32,364 nt of DNA. It comes from an uncultured Chromatiales bacterium. Lineage in GTDB: Bacteria; Pseudomonadota; Gammaproteobacteria; Steroidobacterales; BM003. The notes beneath the pieces are model-generated. The model had not been told where the DNA came from, did no database searches, and saw only the letters and a program-made list of their open reading frames with translations. Numbering within the stretch: position 1 is the stretch's first letter; the number at the start of each line of letters is the position of its first letter. Made by a program: the position numbers and the translations under genes. Shown piece after piece: positions 21,983 through 31,317 of the stretch. The stretch lies in contig CAKZML010000221.1 of assembly GCA_937128475.1 (NCBI GenBank), positions 1-32,364 on the forward strand. Direction: 5' to 3'.

Positions 21983-22864
21983 CTACAGGGTGATCAGGAT
22001 GTAGTGATCCACCAGCAGGACGGCGAAGAGCACCATCAGGTAGGTGATGGAATAGGCGAAGGTTTTCATCGGCAGTTCCGGCCGATCGCTGACTTTCAGG
22101 GCGATGGCGTAATACAGGAAGCCGAAGCCCAGTATCAGTGCTCCGGCCAGGTAGATCAGCCCGCTCATACCAGTGAGGTAGGGCAGGATGGATACCAGTA
22201 GCAGCAAGATCGTATACAGCAGGATATGCAGACGGGTGAAACGATTGCCGTGGGTCACCGGCAGCATGGGAATGCCTACCCGGGCATAGTCATCCCGGCG
22301 TGCGATAGCCAGGGCCCAGAAGTGAGGCGGGGTCCAGATAAAGATGATCAGCACCAGCAGCAGGGCGTGGGGATCCACGCTGCCTGTCACCGCGGTCCAG
22401 CCCAGTAAGGGGGGCGCGGCACCTGAAACGCCGCCAATCACGATGTTTTGTGGGGAGGCGTGCTTCAGCCACAGGGTGTAAATGAATGCGTAGCCGATTA
22501 GCGAGGCAAAGGTCAGTACCGCGGTCAGCGGGTTAATGGCCAGCCAAAGCAGCAGCACCGAGGCCAGCCCAAGCACAAAGGCCAGCGCAATGGCTTCGCG
22601 TACCGTGACCTTGCCGGTGGGCAATGGGCGGCGCTTGGTGCGACCCATGCGTGCGTCCAGGTGATACTCCAGCAACTGGTTGATGGCCGCCGCGGAGGCT
22701 GCCGCCAGTCCAATGCCCAGGGTTCCCAGGATCAGTATGTCCAGCGGGACCATGCCCGGTGTCGCCAGGAACATGCCGACCACGGCGGTGAAAACGATCA
22801 GCGCCACGACCTTGGGTTTGGTCAGTTCGTAGTAGTCCCGGATACGGTTGGAGCTTGCAGACAT
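21983..22864 (-). CDS. cyoE: Protohaem IX farnesyltransferase (haem O synthase)
   Basis: A 293-residue UbiA-family membrane enzyme that adds a farnesyl group to haem B to make haem O. The first Asp-rich site is [21 protein letters not shown] (residues 62-82), matching the CyoE/CtaB signature. The second lies in the loop [20 protein letters not shown]. About eight to nine membrane helices follow the family pattern. It lies at the downstream end of the cytochrome oxidase cluster on the same strand; haem A for that oxidase would need a further step by CtaA, whose gene is not in this window. Confidence 0.96.
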
Positions 22865-22943
22865 AGTTAACTCTATATTCTCTCCACGGGACCTGTGTTC
22901 AGTACCGTGCTTTACGCGTTTTGGCCGTCAATATGGCGGTCAG

Positions 22944-22972
22944 ATGGGCTTGCATTGTGTCCGCTAGCCCAT
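22944..22972. repeat. Inverted repeat upstream of cyoE
   Basis: Perfect 7-bp arms ATGGGCT (22944-22950) and AGCCCAT (22966-22972) with a 15-base spacer, in the 131-bp gap between the SCO-like gene and cyoE. There is no T-run, so it is more likely an operator or a leader hairpin than a terminator, or chance. Confidence 0.35.
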
Positions 22973-22995
22973 CCCATTGGCAAGTCGCCGGGTAG

Positions 22996-23601
22996 TTAGC
23001 CGATATGTGAAAGCTTGAGGAGCTTCTTCATGTCGGAAAGTATCCCCTTGGGTTCGCTGCGAGAACCGTAGCTCATCATCAGGTTTCCCAGGGGATCGAT
23101 CAGGTAAATTCGACCTGACAACAGCGGGTCCACGTTGTCGTGTTGGGGCAGGACCTGGCTGATCGCTTCCTTGTCCGGGCCGTCCAGCCAGGCAATTTTA
23201 AGGTCCGGATGTTCCTCTCCCAGGTCGCGCATTTCACAGCATGGCCCGTTCACCAGGAATACTCTCTGGACCCGATCCATTTCCTTTCCAAGGGCGAGGC
23301 GAATCTGGCGGGTGTTGTAGAGCGCATCTACACAGCCCGTATCGCAGTCCCAGCCATCGATATAAACCAGGGTCCACTTGCCGTCGAGATCTTCCAGCCC
23401 AAATTTTTCGCCATCGCGCTGGGGCAGGGTAAAGGCGGGCATGGGATGCGCCGGCCGTACCAGGTCGCCATGTTCGGTTTGACCCACCGGCCGCCAGCCA
23501 TCAGAAAAATAGTAGCCCCACATGGCCACGCCAACAGGGCCGAAAAAGATCAGGGCCAGGAGCAGAAATTTTGCCCGTGAACGGGGTTCTCTATCAGTCA
23601 T
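22996..23601 (-). CDS. SCO-like/thioredoxin-fold membrane protein of the cytochrome oxidase cluster
   Basis: A 201-residue protein with one N-terminal membrane helix (about residues 11-30) and a periplasmic domain of thioredoxin fold. The core reads FTLPQRDG...GKWTLVYIDGWDCDTGCVDALYNTRQ, with a CxxxC pair at C86/C90 in the place of the SCO1 copper-binding CxxxC, and SGRIYLIDPLGNLMMSY where SCO proteins have the beta strand preceded by a copper-ligand His. Here that His is not at the usual place; H154 is a few residues earlier. An extra CC pair is at 121-122. Similar genes stand between SURF1 and haem synthesis genes in Pseudomonas-type cox clusters and are usually left unnamed. A thiol-reductase or copper-delivery role in CuA assembly is an inference. 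It overlaps SURF1 by 8 bp. Confidence 0.8.
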   Translation of the reverse strand: MTDREPRSRAKFLLLALIFFGPVGVAMWGYYFSDGWRPVGQTEHGDLVRPAHPMPAFTLPQRDGEKFGLEDLDGKWTLVYIDGWDCDTGCVDALYNTRQIRLALGKEMDRVQRVFLVNGPCCEMRDLGEEHPDLKIAWLDGPDKEAISQVLPQHDNVDPLLSGRIYLIDPLGNLMMSYGSRSEPKGILSDMKKLLKLSHIG

Positions 23602-24331
23602 CGCTTTCTTCCTCAGGACGACGCAGGTTTACCACGACGTAAATCACTATCAAAGCCAGGGCTATGGCGAACCACTGCGCGGCGTAGCCCAGGTGTTTGT
23701 CCGGCGACAGCAGTTGTGGGCGCCAGGCCCGCAAGTAGCCGTCTGATTCGCTTTCGTTCATCAGTATTACGGTATCCGCCACAGGATATCCGAGCATGTT
23801 TTCCAAATCGGTCCGGGTCGGATACAGGGCGACCCGAGGCCAGGCTGAGGGTGCATCCTGCGCCTCGCCAAGACGCATCCCGGGTTCCGGGAGGTGGCCC
23901 TTGAACCCGCTAATCCGTCTTTGCTCCCCGGAAACCTCTATCCCCGGTAGTTGCTGGCGATCCCCGGTTGCCGGAACCCAGCCCCGGTTAACAAGCACCG
24001 CCGTCTTGCCGTCCCGCAGTAGCGGGGTTAGCACCTGGTAGCCGGCGTGGCCCTCGTTCAGCATTGCATCCAGGAATACCTGGTGGTCGCTGTCGAAGTG
24101 ACCGAAGGCGGTAACCGGGGTGAACGGCGGGCTATTTTCTTTCAACAAATCCAGCGGTACCACACCGTCAGTCACGCCCGCTGCTTCATAGCTAGCGAAC
24201 AGTGCTTTCTTTTCCGCGGCCCGCTCCAGTTGCCAGTTACCCAGGCTGCAGGTAAGCGCCACCAACGCCACGGTCGCCACGCTGGGCCACAGCCCAGGGC
24301 GAAAACGTCGATTGCCGAACCTAACTGCCAC
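23594..24331 (-). CDS. SURF1 family cytochrome oxidase biogenesis protein
   Basis: A 245-residue SURF1/Shy1 family protein that assists haem A insertion into cytochrome oxidase subunit I. It has two membrane helices, residues about 12-30 (GLWPSVATVALVALTCSLGNWQLERA; the GNWQLERA is the family signature) and about 212-232, preceded by HLGYAAQWFAIA. The periplasmic part contains LVNRGWVPA. The start is GTG at 24331 with GGGAGG about 11 bases upstream. The next gene upstream (DUF2909) is divergent, so a promoter must lie between 24332 and 24434. Confidence 0.93.
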   Translation of the reverse strand: MAVRFGNRRFRPGLWPSVATVALVALTCSLGNWQLERAAEKKALFASYEAAGVTDGVVPLDLLKENSPPFTPVTAFGHFDSDHQVFLDAMLNEGHAGYQVLTPLLRDGKTAVLVNRGWVPATGDRQQLPGIEVSGEQRRISGFKGHLPEPGMRLGEAQDAPSAWPRVALYPTRTDLENMLGYPVADTVILMNESESDGYLRAWRPQLLSPDKHLGYAAQWFAIALALIVIYVVVNLRRPEEESDD

Positions 24332-24434
24332 GGTATACTCAGCCTCCCAGGCTCGCTTTCGTCAAGAATCGAATTACGATCCCCCACGGAAACGCTGCCC
24401 GTTATTTATTCGTTAATGCGACAGGATATGCGCA

Positions 24435-24647
24435 ATGTTCAAGCTCGTCGTCCTGGCCTTGTTGGCCGCGATCATAATTAGCCTGGGTTCAGGTCTGGTG
24501 TACCTCTACAAGGACCAGGGTCCATCCAGGCGCCTGGTCAAGGCACTGACCTTGCGCATCGGCTTTTCCCTGGCGCTGTTCCTGCTGCTGTTCCTGGCCT
24601 GGGCCATGGGCTGGATACAGCCCCATGGCGTCCTGCCACCCGGGTAA
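24435..24647 (+). CDS. DUF2909 twin-transmembrane protein
   Basis: A 70-residue protein made of two membrane helices, at residues about 3-24 and 39-60, joined by the loop YKDQGPSRRLVKALTLR. It matches the small DUF2909 proteins found within cox clusters of pseudomonads and relatives. The function is unknown; position suggests oxidase assembly or stability. It is on the opposite strand to all other cox genes. AGGA lies about 8 bases before the ATG, and a terminator follows directly. Confidence 0.85.
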   Translation: MFKLVVLALLAAIIISLGSGLVYLYKDQGPSRRLVKALTLRIGFSLALFLLLFLAWAMGWIQPHGVLPPG

Positions 24648-24650
24648 ATA

Positions 24651-24680
24651 AAAAAGGCGCTGCAAAAGCAGCGCCCTTTT
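24651..24680. terminator. Bidirectional terminator between DUF2909 gene and coxC
   Basis: Stem GGCGCTGC / GCAGCGCC with an AAAA loop, flanked by AAAAA on one side and CTTTT on the other, so it can end transcription from both strands. It separates coxC (-) from SURF1 (-), so the cox cluster has at least two minus-strand transcription units. Confidence 0.88.
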
Positions 24681-24709
24681 CATTCACGCCGAGGCGTGAT
24701 TATGGCTGC

Positions 24710-25579
24710 TTACAGCCAGTATACAAATATAAACAGCAGCAGCCAGACCACGTCCACAAAGTGCCAGTACCAGGCGACAGCTTCGAAACCGAAGTGGTGC
24801 TCAGGCAGGAAATGGCCTTTCATGGTGCGGAACCAGATCACCGTCAGCATGATCGCACCCACGGTCACGTGCATGCCGTGGAAACCGGTGATCATGAAGA
24901 AGGTTGAACCGTAGACGCCGCTGGCCATGGTCAGATTCAGATCATTGTAGGCGTGGTAGTACTCGTAGCCCTGCAAACCGACGAACAGGAAGCCCAGCGC
25001 GAAGGTCAGGAACAGGAAGATGTTCAGCAGACGGCGGTTGCCTTCCTTGATCGCATGGTGAGCAACCGTGATGGTGGCACCCGAGGTCAACAGGATCAGG
25101 GTATTGATCGCAGGCAGGCCCCAGGGACTCATGGTCTCGTAGTCTCCGCCAACATTGGCCGGACCGTTGGTCGGCCAGGCTGCCTGGAATGTCTCCCAGT
25201 TCAGCAAGTTGGTGAAGAAGTTATTGCCGGCGCCGCCCAGCCACGGTACCGACAGGTTCCGTACATAGAACAGCGCGCCAAAAAACGCGGCAAAGAACAT
25301 GACTTCCGAGAAAATGAACCAGCTCATTCCCATCCGAAAAGACTTGTCCACCTGCAGGTTGTAGGCGCCGCTTTCACTTTCCGCGATCACGTTGCCGAAC
25401 CAGCCGGCCATCATGGTCACCAGGATGGCAACGCCAACCAGGAAAAGGTATTTGCCAAAGGCGGCTTCGTTAAGCCAGGAAGAGGCGCCAATCATCAGCG
25501 AGAAAAGTCCGACTGAACCTACGATAGGCCAGTGACTTCCATGCGGGACGTAGTACGCGGTACCTTGTTTTGCCAGCAT
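24710..25579 (-). CDS. coxC: Cytochrome c oxidase subunit III
   Basis: A 289-residue inner-membrane subunit of aa3-type cytochrome c oxidase with seven helices. Family sequence is visible in YYVPHGSHWPIVGSVGLF (N-terminus), RMGMSWFIFSEVMFFAAFFGALFY, TSGATITVAHHAIKEGNRR and GFHGMHVTVGAIMLTVIW, ending in HFGFEAVAWYWHFVDVVWLLLFIFVYW. The VDVVWL ending with the preceding His is diagnostic. The gene follows cox11 by 30 bp. Confidence 0.96.
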   Translation of the reverse strand: MLAKQGTAYYVPHGSHWPIVGSVGLFSLMIGASSWLNEAAFGKYLFLVGVAILVTMMAGWFGNVIAESESGAYNLQVDKSFRMGMSWFIFSEVMFFAAFFGALFYVRNLSVPWLGGAGNNFFTNLLNWETFQAAWPTNGPANVGGDYETMSPWGLPAINTLILLTSGATITVAHHAIKEGNRRLLNIFLFLTFALGFLFVGLQGYEYYHAYNDLNLTMASGVYGSTFFMITGFHGMHVTVGAIMLTVIWFRTMKGHFLPEHHFGFEAVAWYWHFVDVVWLLLFIFVYWL

Positions 25580-25609
25580 CTTTGTTTCCGTATCTCGTGT
25601 GTGTAAGTT

Positions 25610-26158
25610 TTATCGAGCAGCCGAAGCCAACTCGGTTTGCGAATAAAAAGTATAGGACAGTGTCACCGTGTCCACGTGCTCGGGCAGTTCGGGATCAATA
25701 ATGAACCGCACAGGCATATCACGCGATTCACTTGCGCCGAATTTCTGTTCGGTGAAGCAAAAGCACTCGGTCTTCTGAAAATACTTGTTGGCAGCCGCCG
25801 GCTTGATATCCGGAGTCGCCAGTCCAGTAATGGGACGATCTAAAAGGTTGCGAGCAAAGAAGGTCGTGGAATAAAGCTTGCCGGGGTGCACTTTCATCTT
25901 CGTCACACTGGGCTCGAACTCCCATGCGGCACCGGCAATCCGGTTGGCCACGAATTCAATCGTGACTTCCCGGTCAATATCAGGTGTCTCAATTACCTGG
26001 CTGGCATCGGTTTCCACAATCGCGCTACGGATCCCGGTTATTTCACAAAACACCGAATACAAGGGCACCAGAGCAAACCCGAAGCCAAACATGGCGAGGG
26101 TCATCACCACCAGCTTCAGTGTCAGGGCCTTGTTATCTTGCGGTGTGTTCTGCGTCAT
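25610..26158 (-). CDS. ctaG: Cytochrome c oxidase assembly protein Cox11 (CtaG)
   Basis: A 182-residue copper chaperone for the CuB site of subunit I. One N-terminal membrane helix (about 11-32) is followed by VPLYSVFCEITG with C38, and the periplasmic domain carries the copper motif CFC at 132-134 in KTECFCFTEQKF. The latter half contains MPVRFIIDPELPEHVDTVTLSYTF, typical of the family. It lies 5 bp after the 36-codon small gene and 30 bp before coxC. Confidence 0.96.
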   Translation of the reverse strand: MTQNTPQDNKALTLKLVVMTLAMFGFGFALVPLYSVFCEITGIRSAIVETDASQVIETPDIDREVTIEFVANRIAGAAWEFEPSVTKMKVHPGKLYSTTFFARNLLDRPITGLATPDIKPAAANKYFQKTECFCFTEQKFGASESRDMPVRFIIDPELPEHVDTVTLSYTFYSQTELASAAR

Positions 26159-26163
26159 TACCG

Positions 26164-26274
26164 TTACCCGCGCAAAGACATCGAGGCGATGAATGCCACG
26201 TAGAACGCCACCGCCAGCAATGCCAGGTAAATGGCATTGCGGCGGGCTTTAGGAGTGAGTTTCTTGTTGCTCAT
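26164..26274 (-). CDS. Small single-helix protein of the cox cluster (36 aa)
   Basis: A 36-residue ORF (MSNKKLTPKARRN, then a hydrophobic helix IYLALLAVAFYVAFIAS) between coxA and cox11, with gaps of only 7 and 5 bp. The basic N-terminus and single helix put it in the membrane, N-terminus inside. Small membrane proteins of this form occur at this position in many proteobacterial cox clusters (annotated as small oxidase assembly or membrane proteins). The open frame extends to 26361 inside coxA, but the ATG at 26274 is the sensible start. Function unproven. Confidence 0.75.
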   Translation of the reverse strand: MSNKKLTPKARRNAIYLALLAVAFYVAFIASMSLRG

Positions 26275-26281
26275 GATCGGA

Positions 26282-27877
26282 TTACTTGATTTCCGGCGCA
26301 ACGCTGAAGCTGTGATACGGCGGCGGTGAGGACAGGGTCCACTCCAGGCCGCGCGGCTCATCCCACACCTTGTCAGTGGCTTTCACGCCGCCCTTGGCGC
26401 ACTTGATGACCACATAGATGAACAGCAACTGCGACAGGCCGAAACCGAAACCACCAATCGACGAGATCATGTTGAAATCAGCGAACTGGGTGGCGTAATC
26501 GGGGATCCGTCGCGGCATACCGGCCAGGCCCAGGAAATGCTGGGGGAAGAACAACACGTTGACGAAAATGGTGGACATCCAGAAGTGCACCTTGCCCAGG
26601 GTTTCGTCGTACATGTTGCCGGTCCACTTGGGCAGCCAGTAATACACGCCGGCCATGATCGCGAACACCGCACCAGGCACCAGCACGTAATGGAAGTGGG
26701 CCACCACGAAGTAGGTGTCGTGGTACTGGAAGTCAGCCGGTGCGATGGCCAGCATCAGACCCGAGAAGCCACCGATGGTGAACAGGAACACGAAGGCCAG
26801 CGAGAACAGCATCGGTGTCTCGAAGGTCATTGCGCCACGCCACATGGTGGAAATCCAGTTGAACACTTTCACGCCGGTGGGCACAGCAATCATCATGGTG
26901 GAGAACATGAAGAACAGCTGGCCTGCGATGGGCATACCAACCGTGAACATGTGATGGGCCCACACGATGAATGACAGGAAGGCGATACTTGCGGTTGCAT
27001 ACACCATCGACTCGTAGCCAAACAGGGGCTTGCGAGAGAAGGTCGGAATGATTTCCGAGATAATGCCGAAGGCCGGCAGAATCATGATGTACACCTCGGG
27101 ATGACCGAAGAACCAGAAGATGTGCTGGAACATGACCGGATCACCGCCGCCAGCGGCGTTGAAGAAAGTGGTGCCAAAGTACTGGTCTGTTAGCAGCATG
27201 GTCACGCCACCGGCTAACACCGGCATAACTGCTACCAGCAGGTAGGCAGTGATCAGCCAGGTCCATACGAACAGCGGCATCTTCAGCAGGGTCATGCCGG
27301 GTGCACGCATGTTCATGATGGTTACAACAATGTTGATGGCGCCCATGATCGAGGAGACACCCATCATGTGTATCGCGAAAATCAGGAACGGCAATGCGAC
27401 ACCGGTCTGCTGAATAAGCGGGGGATACATGGTCCAGCCGCCGGCAGGTCCGCCGCCGGGCATGATCAGGGTGGACAGCAGCATGGTGAAAGCAAACGGA
27501 AGAATCCAGAAGCTCCAGTTATTCATGCGAGGCAGTGCCATGTCCGGCGCGCCGATCATGATCGGGATCATCCAGTTAGCCAGGCCCACGGTGGCGGGCA
27601 TCACTGCGCCAAACACCATGATAAGTGCGTGCATGGTGGTCATCTGGTTGAAGAAACCAGGCTCAACCAACTGCAGACCAGGCTGGAACAATTCAGCACG
27701 GATGACCATGGCCATGGCGCCGCCGGTCATGAACATGACCAGGGAGAAGATCAGGTACATGGTACCGATGTCTTTATGGTTGGTCGTAAACAGCCAACGC
27801 TTCAGGCCTTTTGCAGGACCGTGATCGTGGTGATCGTCGTGGTGATCGGTATGGCTGTGGGTGTCAACTTGACTCAT
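26282..27877 (-). CDS. coxA: Cytochrome c oxidase subunit I
   Basis: A 531-residue catalytic subunit of an aa3-type haem-copper oxidase with 12 helices. Ligands visible: H83 (low-spin haem) in TTMHALIMVFG; CuB ligand H259 and the cross-linked Tyr in WFFGHPEVY (259-263), with the E typical of A1-type D-channel oxidases; H308-H309 in VWAHHMFTVGM; and the high-spin and low-spin haem histidines in VVAHFHYVL. The N-terminus has seven His within residues 7-19. It lies 15 bp after coxB. Haem A is expected in this type but cannot be confirmed from sequence. Confidence 0.97.
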   Translation of the reverse strand: MSQVDTHSHTDHHDDHHDHGPAKGLKRWLFTTNHKDIGTMYLIFSLVMFMTGGAMAMVIRAELFQPGLQLVEPGFFNQMTTMHALIMVFGAVMPATVGLANWMIPIMIGAPDMALPRMNNWSFWILPFAFTMLLSTLIMPGGGPAGGWTMYPPLIQQTGVALPFLIFAIHMMGVSSIMGAINIVVTIMNMRAPGMTLLKMPLFVWTWLITAYLLVAVMPVLAGGVTMLLTDQYFGTTFFNAAGGGDPVMFQHIFWFFGHPEVYIMILPAFGIISEIIPTFSRKPLFGYESMVYATASIAFLSFIVWAHHMFTVGMPIAGQLFFMFSTMMIAVPTGVKVFNWISTMWRGAMTFETPMLFSLAFVFLFTIGGFSGLMLAIAPADFQYHDTYFVVAHFHYVLVPGAVFAIMAGVYYWLPKWTGNMYDETLGKVHFWMSTIFVNVLFFPQHFLGLAGMPRRIPDYATQFADFNMISSIGGFGFGLSQLLFIYVVIKCAKGGVKATDKVWDEPRGLEWTLSSPPPYHSFSVAPEIK

Positions 27878-27892
27878 TACTTTCGTCTCCGC

Positions 27893-28738
27893 TTAAAGCT
27901 TGCGCGTAGCTGCAACGTTTTCGGGGGAAGCCACTTTGTCGGTGGTTTGTTCCACCAACCAGGCATCGTATTCATCACGTTCCAGCACGTGAACAACAAC
28001 CGGCATGAAGCCGTGATCGCGTCCACACAGTTCTGCACACTGGCCACGGTAGATACCGGGCACGTCTGCCTTGAACCAGGCTTCGTTGATATAGCCGGGG
28101 ATGGCGTCTTTCTTGACCGCGAGGTCCGGCACCCACCAGGCGTGCAGGACATCAGCGGCAGTCAGCAACAACCTGACCTTGGCGCCAACCGGAACCACCA
28201 GCGGGTGGTCTACTTCCAGCAAATAGTTTTCGACAGAAAACGGATCGGTTCCTGAATTCACCCGGCGAGCCTGGTTGCTTTCGCGATCCAGGGTGCTGTA
28301 GAAGCCGATGTCATGATCCAGGTAGTCATAGCGCCAGCGCCACTGGTACCCGGTGACTTTGACGGTCATGTCGGCATTGCGAGTGTCTTCAACCTTGATC
28401 AGTCCTTCAGCAGCGGGGACGGCCATGGCGATGAGAATGATGATCGGGATCACGGTCCAGATAATCTCTGCCTTGGTGCTGTGATAGAACTGCGCCGGTT
28501 CTACGCCGCGGGATTTACGGTGAAGAAAGATGGATACGATCATCACGCCGAACACTACGATGGCGATGGCGACGCATACCCCAAGGATTAGCATATGTAA
28601 TCCGTATACTTCCTTACTGACTTCCGTGACGCCTACGGGCATATTCAACGCCCAGTCGGCGAGGGCGGCAGGTGCGAAAGCGCTTGCGAACAAAGCCAGC
28701 GCTGCGCTGTGCAGCCGATTCAAGATGGTGCGGGACAT
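27893..28738 (-). CDS. coxB: Cytochrome c oxidase subunit II
   Basis: A 281-residue subunit carrying the CuA electron-entry site. A cleaved signal peptide (about residues 1-28, ending PAALA) is followed by two membrane helices (about 48-72 and 92-112) and a cupredoxin domain. CuA ligands: H199 in VLHAWWVPDL and CAELCGRDHGFM with C234, C238, H242 and M245. The aromatic patch YQWRWRYDY (131-139) for cytochrome c electron entry is present. There is no C-terminal cytochrome c domain. The ATG at 28738 has AGGAG about 9 bases upstream; a TTG at 28747 sits on top of that site and is rejected. First gene of the cox series. Confidence 0.96.
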   Translation of the reverse strand: MSRTILNRLHSAALALFASAFAPAALADWALNMPVGVTEVSKEVYGLHMLILGVCVAIAIVVFGVMIVSIFLHRKSRGVEPAQFYHSTKAEIIWTVIPIIILIAMAVPAAEGLIKVEDTRNADMTVKVTGYQWRWRYDYLDHDIGFYSTLDRESNQARRVNSGTDPFSVENYLLEVDHPLVVPVGAKVRLLLTAADVLHAWWVPDLAVKKDAIPGYINEAWFKADVPGIYRGQCAELCGRDHGFMPVVVHVLERDEYDAWLVEQTTDKVASPENVAATRKL

Positions 28739-29406
28739 CAAACCCAACTCCTGTGTTTTACGAATTCAGAACTACCTGTCCTCACTGGCAACGCAGCAAA
28801 GACGCTTTTTGCCGACCAGGTTCAGCAGGAACTGAATCTGGATGACAGAGTGTCTCGTCGATCTTCCGTTGCCGGGGTCGTAGCGCTAACTGTCTGCATC
28901 ACCGTGGCCAGTAGCGGGCAACATATCTGCCCTGACGCTGGCGGAATTCCTGACGACAGATCGTGTCATCACGACTGTTTCAGGCACGGCCCGCTATTAC
29001 TCCGGATTCTTCTGTTTATCCCGTGATGAACAGCGCGATCCACTGATTAGATGGACGGTGCTTGCGGCCGGTTTCGCGTATAAACCCAGCCAATTCACAC
29101 CCGAAATCCGGTAGGGATTTGTCTCCCTATTAGTACCCGAACGCCTGCCGCTCATCGACGAAAGCGGAAATGGTACTAGAAGGAGTCTAGTCACGCAATC
29201 AAGCCGAATCAGGGTGTGCCGCCCTAGGGCCTTGAATTTTCTACCAGAATTTAGACTGGGAAGCGGGAAATTCAGGATTCTCGTCAGGCTTTTTAGACTG
29301 GGAAGCGGAAAATTCGGATTTTCGGGGGTCACAGGGGCTTCGGGAAGGTGCCCGATAGAACCAGCTGGTTGGGAATTTTTCCCGCAGAGATGCCGCGAAT
29401 AAAGGC
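28739..29406. other. Long structured intergenic region upstream of coxB
   Basis: 668 bp between bioC and coxB, both on the minus strand. I find no convincing gene: open frames of up to 111 codons exist but lack start signals and recognisable domains. The region contains a tandem imperfect direct repeat (29250-29324) and several short hairpins: ACAG(A)TCGTG/CACGACTGT at 28956-28978, TAGGGA/TCCCTA at 29112-29129, ACTAGA/TCTAGT at 29175-29191, the palindrome GCCCTAGGGC at 29221-29230, and GGGAATTTTTCCC at 29371-29383. It must contain the coxB promoter and 5' leader. It may also be a dispersed intergenic element or a relic. Confidence 0.55.
29250..29324. repeat. Two-copy imperfect tandem direct repeat (about 33 bp, 42-bp period)
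   Basis: Copy 1 at 29250-29283 and copy 2 at 29292-29324. Both begin with the identical 17-base TTTAGACTGGGAAGCGG and continue (G/A)AAATTC(A)GGATT(C/T)TCG; one indel and two substitutions separate them, with an 8-base spacer (TCAGGCTT). Too few copies and too short a spacer for CRISPR. Confidence 0.8.
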
Positions 29407-30297
29407 TCAGCGGTCCAGTTGCCGTGTCCGTAACCCGTCCATGGGTACCAGGGTTTCTCCGTCCCGGGTTTGCCGTTGGCGGGGCACCGCGGCCCAGGCG
29501 TGGCCGTAAACCACTTCGTAAGTGGCGGGCAAGCCGTCGGCGTTGCGGTTCGATTCGTAGGCATCGGCCAGGATCTTGAGTTGCCTGGGGGTAATCAAAC
29601 CCGGTGGCCGCCCGGAGGTGACGTTGCTTTCCCCGGTGGCCTTGAGGTCTCGCAGCAGTTCGTCAAGGCTGCCGTAGGTGACGGTGACGTGCTCCACGTC
29701 AAGCACCGGATCGGAGAATCCTGCTCGTATCAAGGCGTCTCCGATGTCATGCATGTCGACGAACAGGTTCACGTGGTTGTGGCTGTCCACCGTGGCCCAC
29801 GCGGCGCGTAATTCCCCAAGGGTGTCGGGTCCGAAGGTGCTGAAGCTCAGCAGTCCGCCCGGGCGCAGCACCCTGGCAAATTCTGAAATGGCCTGGTCCA
29901 GGTCGTCTGACCAGTGCAGGGCCAGGTTGGAGATCACCAGTTCCTGGGAGTCCCGGGCAAGGGGCAGGCAGGCCAGGTCGCCACACACTCGCTGGAACTT
30001 GCGAAACAGCCTCTGCTTCCGTCCGGCCTGGGCCAGCATGGCCTCGGACAGGTCCAGGGCCGTGACCCGGGCGCCACGGTAACGCGTGAGCAACTCCGCC
30101 GAGGCGCTTCCCGTCCCGCAGCCCGCATCCAGTATCGCCTTGGGCTTCAGCTTAACCAGGTCCAGGCGCTCCAGGAGGCGAGTGCTGATCTCTGCGTGCA
30201 AGATGCTGGCGTTGTCGTAGCTGGCGGCTGCACGGTCCAGGTTACGCCGGAGCTGCCTGCGGCTGATCAGAAACGGATTTTTGGCGTCGGCTGTCAT
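29407..30297 (-). CDS. bioC: Malonyl-ACP O-methyltransferase
   Basis: A 296-residue SAM-dependent methyltransferase that methylates malonyl-ACP to start pimelate assembly for biotin. The SAM site AILDAGCGTGSASAELL (residues about 54-70) is followed by VTALDLSEAMLAQA and CGDLACLPL. The BioC-specific NLALHWSDDLDQAISEFARVLRPGGLLSFSTFGPDTLGELR and the C-terminal domain MHDIGDALIRAGFSDPVLDVE then TYGSLDELLRDLKATG are present. It is longer than E. coli BioC (251), with extra residues at the C-terminus. No other biotin gene (bioB, F, H, D) is adjacent, although they commonly are. The start lacks a good ribosome-binding site. Confidence 0.93.
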   Translation of the reverse strand: MTADAKNPFLISRRQLRRNLDRAAASYDNASILHAEISTRLLERLDLVKLKPKAILDAGCGTGSASAELLTRYRGARVTALDLSEAMLAQAGRKQRLFRKFQRVCGDLACLPLARDSQELVISNLALHWSDDLDQAISEFARVLRPGGLLSFSTFGPDTLGELRAAWATVDSHNHVNLFVDMHDIGDALIRAGFSDPVLDVEHVTVTYGSLDELLRDLKATGESNVTSGRPPGLITPRQLKILADAYESNRNADGLPATYEVVYGHAWAAVPRQRQTRDGETLVPMDGLRTRQLDR

Positions 30298-30606
30298 GGG
30301 GAGGGGATTCTACTACTGACCGGGCCCAGTCCCACACCCCCAGGGACAAATCGACCTCCCGGCTGCCCGCAGCTTGCCGGCGCTCATCTGTCTTTTCGAT
30401 GATTGTCGCGCTAAATGCGTTAAAACGGATCTTAAAAGTCATTAAAATCTTTAAAAAAGCAGGATTCTTCCTGAAACCATCCTCAATTGGGAGTTTGGCA
30501 TTAACGCGATTTCTCTGCCAATCTGCGAATTATCGGAGTTGTTTTGGCGAAATTAGAAGAAGATGCTGAAACATAGGCTCAAAAGCACTCGATTATGGAG
30601 ACTGGT
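30298..30606. other. Divergent intergenic region between bioC and the ComF-family gene
   Basis: 309 bp, AT-rich from about 30405 to 30560, with no credible gene. It must carry promoters for both flanking genes. A small inverted repeat CAGGA-TTCT-TCCTG lies at 30460-30473. I searched by eye for a BirA-type operator (TTGTAAACC with a matching inverted half) and did not see one. Confidence 0.5.
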
Positions 30607-31317
30607 ATGGGATTGGCAGGCTTGCTGGCCTGGCTACAGGGGCCTCCCCGTTGCTACTTGTGCCTTGGGCGCTGCGGCAAGGGAATGTTGTGCCCGGTGT
30701 GCCGGGACTCCCTGCCCGGCCCCCGAGTTGCCTGCCAGCGCTGCGGTCGACCCCTGGCGCGACCGGCGCCGGCCTGTGGCACCTGTCTTTCCCGGCCACC
30801 GCCTTACGACTCCCTGTGCTGTCCCATGGAATATCGTTTTCCGGTGGACCAATTGATCCAGGCGCTGAAATTTAACGCTGACCTGGTGGCGGGTGGATTA
30901 CTGGCGAGTTTGCTGGTGGAACCTCTGGTGGATCGGAACGGCCCGCTGCCCCAGGCGATTCTGCCCATACCCCTGCATCCCAGGCGCCAGCGGTCCAGGG
31001 GGTTTAACCAGTCCAGTGAGATTGCCCGGCACCTGGGGAAGGCCTTGTGCCTGCCGGTGCTGGAAGATTGCCTTGAGCGCTGGCGACATGACCCACCCCA
31101 AAGCAGCCTGACGGCGCTGCAAAGACGCCGAAACGTAAATGGCGCATATCGATTGCGAACCCGGAAAGGGCGATTGCCGGAGAGTGTTGCCTTGGTGGAT
31201 GACGTGGTGACCACCGGGTCCACCGTGGATGCCGCGACCAGGGTGTTGAAATCTGCGGGGGTTAGGCGGGTGGAGGTGTGGGCGGTGGCAAGGGCGATGG
31301 GGGCCCCAGGGACCTGA
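30607..31317 (+). CDS. ComF/GntX family phosphoribosyltransferase-like protein
   Basis: A 236-residue protein with an N-terminal zinc-binding region (CxxC pairs C16/C19, C29/C32, C43/C46 and C57/C60) and a C-terminal type I phosphoribosyltransferase fold. The PRPP-loop motif is SVALVDDVVTTGSTVDAATRVL, and PIPLHPRRQRSRGFNQSSEIA is the family's conserved middle. E. coli GntX/YhgH supports use of DNA as nutrient, and ComF of naturally competent bacteria supports transformation. The enzymatic substrate, if any, is unknown. I chose the ATG at 30607 because GGAG lies about 6 bases upstream; an ATG at 30595 in frame is possible. In gammaproteobacteria this gene often borders the bio operon, and here it borders bioC divergently. 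Confidence 0.9.
   Translation: MGLAGLLAWLQGPPRCYLCLGRCGKGMLCPVCRDSLPGPRVACQRCGRPLARPAPACGTCLSRPPPYDSLCCPMEYRFPVDQLIQALKFNADLVAGGLLASLLVEPLVDRNGPLPQAILPIPLHPRRQRSRGFNQSSEIARHLGKALCLPVLEDCLERWRHDPPQSSLTALQRRRNVNGAYRLRTRKGRLPESVALVDDVVTTGSTVDAATRVLKSAGVRRVEVWAVARAMGAPGT

What the first reader, a model, noticed from the sequence alone, without database searches (positions are those of the whole stretch)
28739..29406. Structured 668-bp gap with tandem repeat and hairpins upstream of coxB
The region is long for this tightly packed segment and holds a 2 x 33-bp imperfect repeat, five short hairpins or palindromes and no credible gene. It could be a long coxB 5' leader with regulatory structure, a non-coding RNA locus, or a copy of a dispersed intergenic repeat. 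The repeat units are 17/17 identical at their 5' ends and diverge after, as expected of a repeated element with a conserved core.
Basis: partly seen in the sequence, partly recalled or inferred. Interest (0 to 1): 0.55.

Follow-up and report, generated by a model that had tools for sequence, protein, structure and literature searches.

The report
Non-coding seam left by lost DUF2244
The gap upstream of the cytochrome oxidase gene coxB is ordinary non-coding DNA sitting where close relatives carry a small membrane-protein gene (DUF2244) that this genus lacks; it probably now serves as a long promoter and leader region for coxB, and its short repeat is local, not a mobile or genome-wide element.

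Summary
The gap is real: 668 nt (28739-29406), no gene, a 17/17-identical local repeat, slightly more short hairpins than chance. It is one of a kind in its genome and shows no Rfam family. Its only near full-length relative is the syntenic gap of one congener (82% identical, no codon periodicity). A second congener shares islands only.

The explanation lies outside the coordinates. In relatives the order is bioC-(bioD)-DUF2244-coxB. DUF2244 was found in 28 of 59 related genomes and coxB lies beside it in 28 of 28. It is absent from all three genomes of this genus. In 15 of 17 relatives without a detected bioD the bioC-to-coxB interval that holds DUF2244 is 641-855 nt. The gap therefore fills the DUF2244 slot, although no DUF2244 sequence can be recognised in it.

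A promoter-like block (TTGCGT-17-TACCAT, minus strand, 29170-29198) is kept in all three congeners and resembles the block before DUF2244 in the sister genus, so the likeliest present role is an upstream coxB promoter with a leader of about 425 nt. A dispersed repeat is excluded; a structured RNA is not supported. Interest is low.

The parts
27893..28738 (-). coxB, cytochrome c oxidase subunit II, ATG at 28738
   Evidence: TIGR02866 5e-59; PF00116, PF02790
28739..29406 (.). non-coding gap occupying the position of DUF2244 in relatives
   Evidence: flat codon phase; coxB beside DUF2244 in 28 of 28 DUF2244 loci; DUF2244 absent in G000-G002; slot length 641-855 nt in 15 of 17 relatives
28739..28779 (-). 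coxB-proximal leader with Shine-Dalgarno AGGAG (28748-28752)
   Evidence: 41 of 41 identical to G001; the part next to the ATG also kept in G002; GGAGTYGGGTTTGATGTCC kept in G003
29170..29198 (-). promoter-like block: -35 TTGCGT (29193-29198), 17 nt, -10 TACCAT (29170-29175); predicted start near 29163
   Evidence: same spacing in G001 and G002, TTGCGC-17-TAGTAT upstream of DUF2244 in G003; G002-G003 alignment score 45, 0 of 1000 shuffles and 0 of 1127 control segments reach it. Not found by the strict promoter scan
29072..29100 (-). conserved island GTGTGAA-N8/9-GTTTATACGCGAAA, possible hairpin or second promoter
   Evidence: kept in three congeners; searched in the genomes
29223..29243 (-). 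conserved island TAGAAAATTCAA...CTAGG just upstream of the promoter-like block
29250..29273 (+). repeat copy 1
29292..29315 (+). repeat copy 2, 42 nt from copy 1
   Evidence: both copies with the 10-mer TTTAGACTGG and the same spacing also in G001; not in G002
29407..30297 (-). bioC, malonyl-ACP O-methyltransferase
   Evidence: TIGR02072 2e-64, over cut-off
30595..31317 (+). comF-like gene, outer landmark of the biotin cluster in the sister genus
   Evidence: TIGR00201 5.8e-32, below its cut-off; neighbour order in G003

Best explanation
The gap is the seam left where the genus lost the DUF2244 gene (and, if it was there, bioD) from the conserved run bioC-(bioD)-DUF2244-coxB. The DNA has drifted so far that no gene remnant is recognisable, or was replaced by unrelated DNA. 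What is kept is a promoter-like block that stood before DUF2244 and the ribosome-binding region of coxB. It most likely works today as an upstream promoter region of the coxB-coxA-ctaG-coxC operon with an untranslated leader of about 425 nt. The tandem repeat is a local duplication upstream of that promoter. Shown: slot, absence of DUF2244, non-coding evolution, homology of the gap within the genus. Inferred: the direction (loss), promoter activity, start site, leader.
For: DUF2244 in 28 of 59 genomes, in none of G000, G001, G002 but in sister genus G003; coxB in 28 of 28 DUF2244 loci; a BioC relative upstream in 23 of 28; bioC-to-coxB interval 641-855 nt in 15 of 17 loci without a detected bioD, window 668. 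G003 order comF|bioB-bioF-bioH-bioC-bioD-DUF2244-coxB-coxA. bioD absent in G000-G002. Not coding now. Gap homologous to that of G002: local score 92 against a maximum of 34 in 200 shuffles. Promoter-like block shared by four genomes.
Against: No DUF2244 or bioD remnant: profile scores of the gap lie within the shuffle range in all three genomes; by simulation a remnant would be visible up to about 30% substitutions. So the gap could equally be unrelated DNA. 59 of 89 coxB loci held had no DUF2244 in the DNA held (some genomes counted twice, some held short), so its absence is common and the loss is inferred from the nearest relatives only. The promoter block was significant for G002 against G003 only (G000 22, G001 24, within the null), and the control maximum, 43, is close to 45. 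No strict sigma-70 match.
Confidence: 0.65

Rival explanations
1. A long coxB leader with a conserved cis-acting RNA structure (riboswitch or thermosensor type) controls oxidase synthesis.
For: The 120-nt window just downstream of the promoter-like block has folding z -2.3 (G000) and -2.8 (G001) on the coxB strand; invariant potential stem at 29072-29100.
Against: Covariation term +2.6 kcal/mol, many broken pairs in G002; no Rfam match; islands look conserved as sequence, not as pairs; the plus strand shows z values as low.
Confidence: 0.1
2. coxB is transcribed from a promoter close to its ATG and the rest of the gap is neutral filler.
For: 28739-28779 is 41 of 41 identical to G001 and 28780-28899 107 of 120; a near-match TTGCCA-17-TGAATT starts 53 nt upstream (8 of 12); the gap as a whole differs by 18%, between third codon positions of coxB (38 of 282) and bioC (72 of 297).
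Against: The near-match is not among the best eight in G002, where the islands 330-500 nt upstream are kept.
Confidence: 0.2
3. A copy of a dispersed intergenic repeat or small mobile element.
For: 17-mer identical repeat.
Against: Single copy in the genome; 17-mer matches no more frequent than its reversed control; none in plasmids or phages; syntenic in a congener over nearly its whole length.
Confidence: 0.02
4. An unrecognised small protein gene.
For: Open frames of 101-111 aa touch the gap.
Against: No Pfam match for the three scanned; even codon phase against the congener.
Confidence: 0.02

Closest known systems
DUF2244 (PF10003) gene before coxB
   Same: Same place between bioC and coxB, similar length of the interval
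   Different: No DUF2244 sequence is recognisable in the gap
Operon seam after gene loss (general phenomenon)
   Same: Flanking gene order kept, gene missing from the genome, non-coding drift
   Different: Sequence remnant not demonstrated; replacement by other DNA not excluded
Long 5' leader of a respiratory operon
   Same: Promoter-like block far upstream, conserved ribosome-binding region
   Different: No transcript evidence, no covarying structure

Membership tests
DUF2244 pseudogene | Syntenic position between bioC and coxB | tested here: met
DUF2244 pseudogene | Recognisable DUF2244 sequence, frame breaks allowed | tested here: not met
   scores within the shuffle range in G000, G001, G002. 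So it is filed as a seam in the slot, not as a pseudogene
Dispersed intergenic repeat | Several copies in the genome | tested here: not met
Structured regulatory RNA | Match to a known family | tested here: not met
Structured regulatory RNA | Compensatory changes in the relatives | tested here: inconclusive
   three sequences only, covariation term +2.6
sigma-70-type promoter region of coxB | Hexamers and 17-nt spacing kept among relatives | tested here: inconclusive
   spacing kept in 4 of 4, hexamers weak; one search finds none by strict rules
sigma-70-type promoter region of coxB | Transcription start | not testable with these tools
   no RNA data

The most novel reading that the evidence does not exclude
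After losing DUF2244 the genus turned the seam into a regulatory leader of the oxidase operon: the kept promoter, the conserved island at 29072-29100 and two repeat copies set exactly 42 nt (four helical turns) apart upstream of it would be sites of a regulator of the oxidase.
Probability: 0.08. Interest if true: 0.4.

Novelty: new member of a known kind. Interest (0 to 1): 0.18.

Why it matters
It shows that an odd-looking gap can be explained by reading the gene order of relatives. It also exposes a conserved link between DUF2244, a family without assigned function, and coxB, and three related genomes in which that link is broken.

Tried and rejected
Dispersed repeat: rejected. Known RNA: none. 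Coding gene: rejected. DUF2244 remnant by profile on six frames with X at stops and by a frame-tolerant profile alignment with shuffles and a decay simulation: none; bioD likewise. Spacers of 28 DUF2244 loci against the three gaps: only G003 against G002 stands out (45, z 9.1); the next, L134 against G000 (33, z 5.3), was not pursued. Islands searched in four genomes for a regulon: AATGGTACTAGAAGG shows no excess over its reversed control; TTTCGCGTATAAACC is somewhat above it (17 matches against 8 over four genomes, most of the surplus with 2 mismatches, in G002 and the sister genus), which I did not follow up. A 27-nt match in G020 lies inside a kinase-like open frame and was taken as chance. 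Papers: DUF2244 with cytochrome c oxidase 0 papers, DUF2244 alone 2, coxB leader terms 0.

Full report
Observation. The 668-nt gap between the bioC stop (29407) and the coxB ATG (28738) is as described. The exact 17-mer exceeds the longest repeat of all 500 shuffles (12), and five 6-bp hairpins stand against 1.8 expected (18 of 500 shuffles reach five). The repeat is therefore real, the hairpins only a mild excess.

Not a dispersed element, not a gene, not a known RNA. The gap has one place in its own genome. The 17-mer with up to 3 mismatches gives 5 places, its reversed control 6. Plasmid and phage collections give nothing, nor does Rfam. Three open frames touching the gap match no Pfam family. 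Against congener G001 the gap is 82% identical with 119 substitutions spread 37/41/41 over codon phases; coxB gives 11/38/2 and bioC 72/19/28.

Conservation. In 59 related genomes (own included) four had a match at E up to 0.001: itself, G001 over positions 1-663, G002 over the first 30 bases and G020 over 27 bases. The two other congeners held, G001 and G002, have the gap at the same place. G000 and G002 gaps are homologous (local score 92; maximum of 200 shuffles 34), through islands at 29072-29100, around 29150-29185 and 29223-29243. As a whole the gap differs from G001 by about 18%, between third codon positions of coxB (38 of 282) and of bioC (72 of 297), so most of it drifts freely. The stretch next to coxB is stricter: 0 of 41 and 13 of 120 changes.

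What relatives have there. In sister genus G003 a 184-aa open frame sits directly before coxB and matches PF10003, DUF2244, at 9.2e-39. PF10003 was found in 28 of 59 genomes, in none of G000, G001, G002. A coxB gene lies within the fetched flank of 28 of 28 DUF2244 loci, a BioC relative in 23 of 28 and a relative of the G003 BioD in 7 of 28. Where BioC was found without BioD, the bioC-to-coxB interval is 641-855 nt in 15 of 17, two being over 1500. The window's 668 nt fits. G003 carries comF, then bioB, bioF, bioH, bioC, bioD, DUF2244, coxB, coxA (bioH is named by me from its place and its open frame, not by a family search). bioD is absent from G000-G002; bioB is absent from G000 and G001 and only a weak sub-threshold match exists in G002; bioF-like matches in the three stay below the cut-off. 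The genomes are 96, 96 and 90% complete in many contigs, so the absences agree over three assemblies but each alone could be a gap of assembly. G001, G002 and G003 appear to be JAOTSW010000034 (Chromatiales MAG), JAPHSC010000418 and PKUM01000316, by equal contig lengths.

Is the gap the decayed gene? Position says yes, sequence is silent. A DUF2244 profile from the 28 proteins scores no frame of the three gaps, and a frame-tolerant alignment stays within the shuffle range for DUF2244 and bioD, whereas simulated decay of a real gene remained visible up to about 30% substitutions. So it is called a seam in the DUF2244 slot, not a pseudogene. Of 89 coxB loci held, 30 had DUF2244 in the held DNA, so lacking it is common in the wider group.

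Likely present role. The gap of G002 aligns on the coxB strand with the G003 spacer before DUF2244 at score 45: 0 of 1000 shuffles and 0 of 1127 other segments reach it, though the best of those has 43. The G000 and G001 gaps do not reach significance against G003 on their own. The shared block reads TTGC(N)2-17-TA(N)2AT in four of four genomes, starting 460, 460, 514 and about 669 nt before coxB. I read it as the kept promoter of the former DUF2244-coxB unit, which would now give coxB a leader of about 425 nt. The strict promoter scan does not see it. Consensus folding of three congeners has a covariation term of +2.6 kcal/mol, no support for a conserved RNA structure.

The repeat. Both copies, with the shared 10-mer TTTAGACTGG and the 42-nt spacing, exist in G001 (17 of 24 identical to each other there) but not in G002; in G000 the copies are more alike (23) than either is to its G001 counterpart (18 and 20). 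This fits a local duplication with later homogenisation, or sites of a regulator; there is no evidence to choose.

DUF2244 in print. Passages of PMC2817789 suggest that it may belong to the bacterial PH-domain group and has two N-terminal membrane helices. Of the second paper, PMC8815115, I saw only the listing. No held paper joins DUF2244 with cytochrome c oxidase in that search.

Noticed in passing
29407-30297 and 30298-30594: bioC stands alone here although bioB, bioD and an over-cut-off bioF were not found in the three congeners; in the sister genus bioB-bioF-bioH lie between comF and bioC. The genus seems to have lost biotin synthesis but kept bioC under coding constraint.
   Followed up: partly
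L129 and the other DUF2244 loci L120-L147: DUF2244, a family without assigned function, lies beside coxB in 28 of 28 loci where it was found among 59 related genomes: a hint at a role in cytochrome oxidase assembly.
   Followed up: partly
21983-27877: An ordinary oxidase operon follows: coxA, ctaG/Cox11, coxC, SURF1, a weak SCO1/SenC match, and a UbiA-type prenyltransferase.
   Followed up: no
window 27800-27850: G001 lacks 12 nt of the repetitive His-Asp-rich start of coxA.
   Followed up: no
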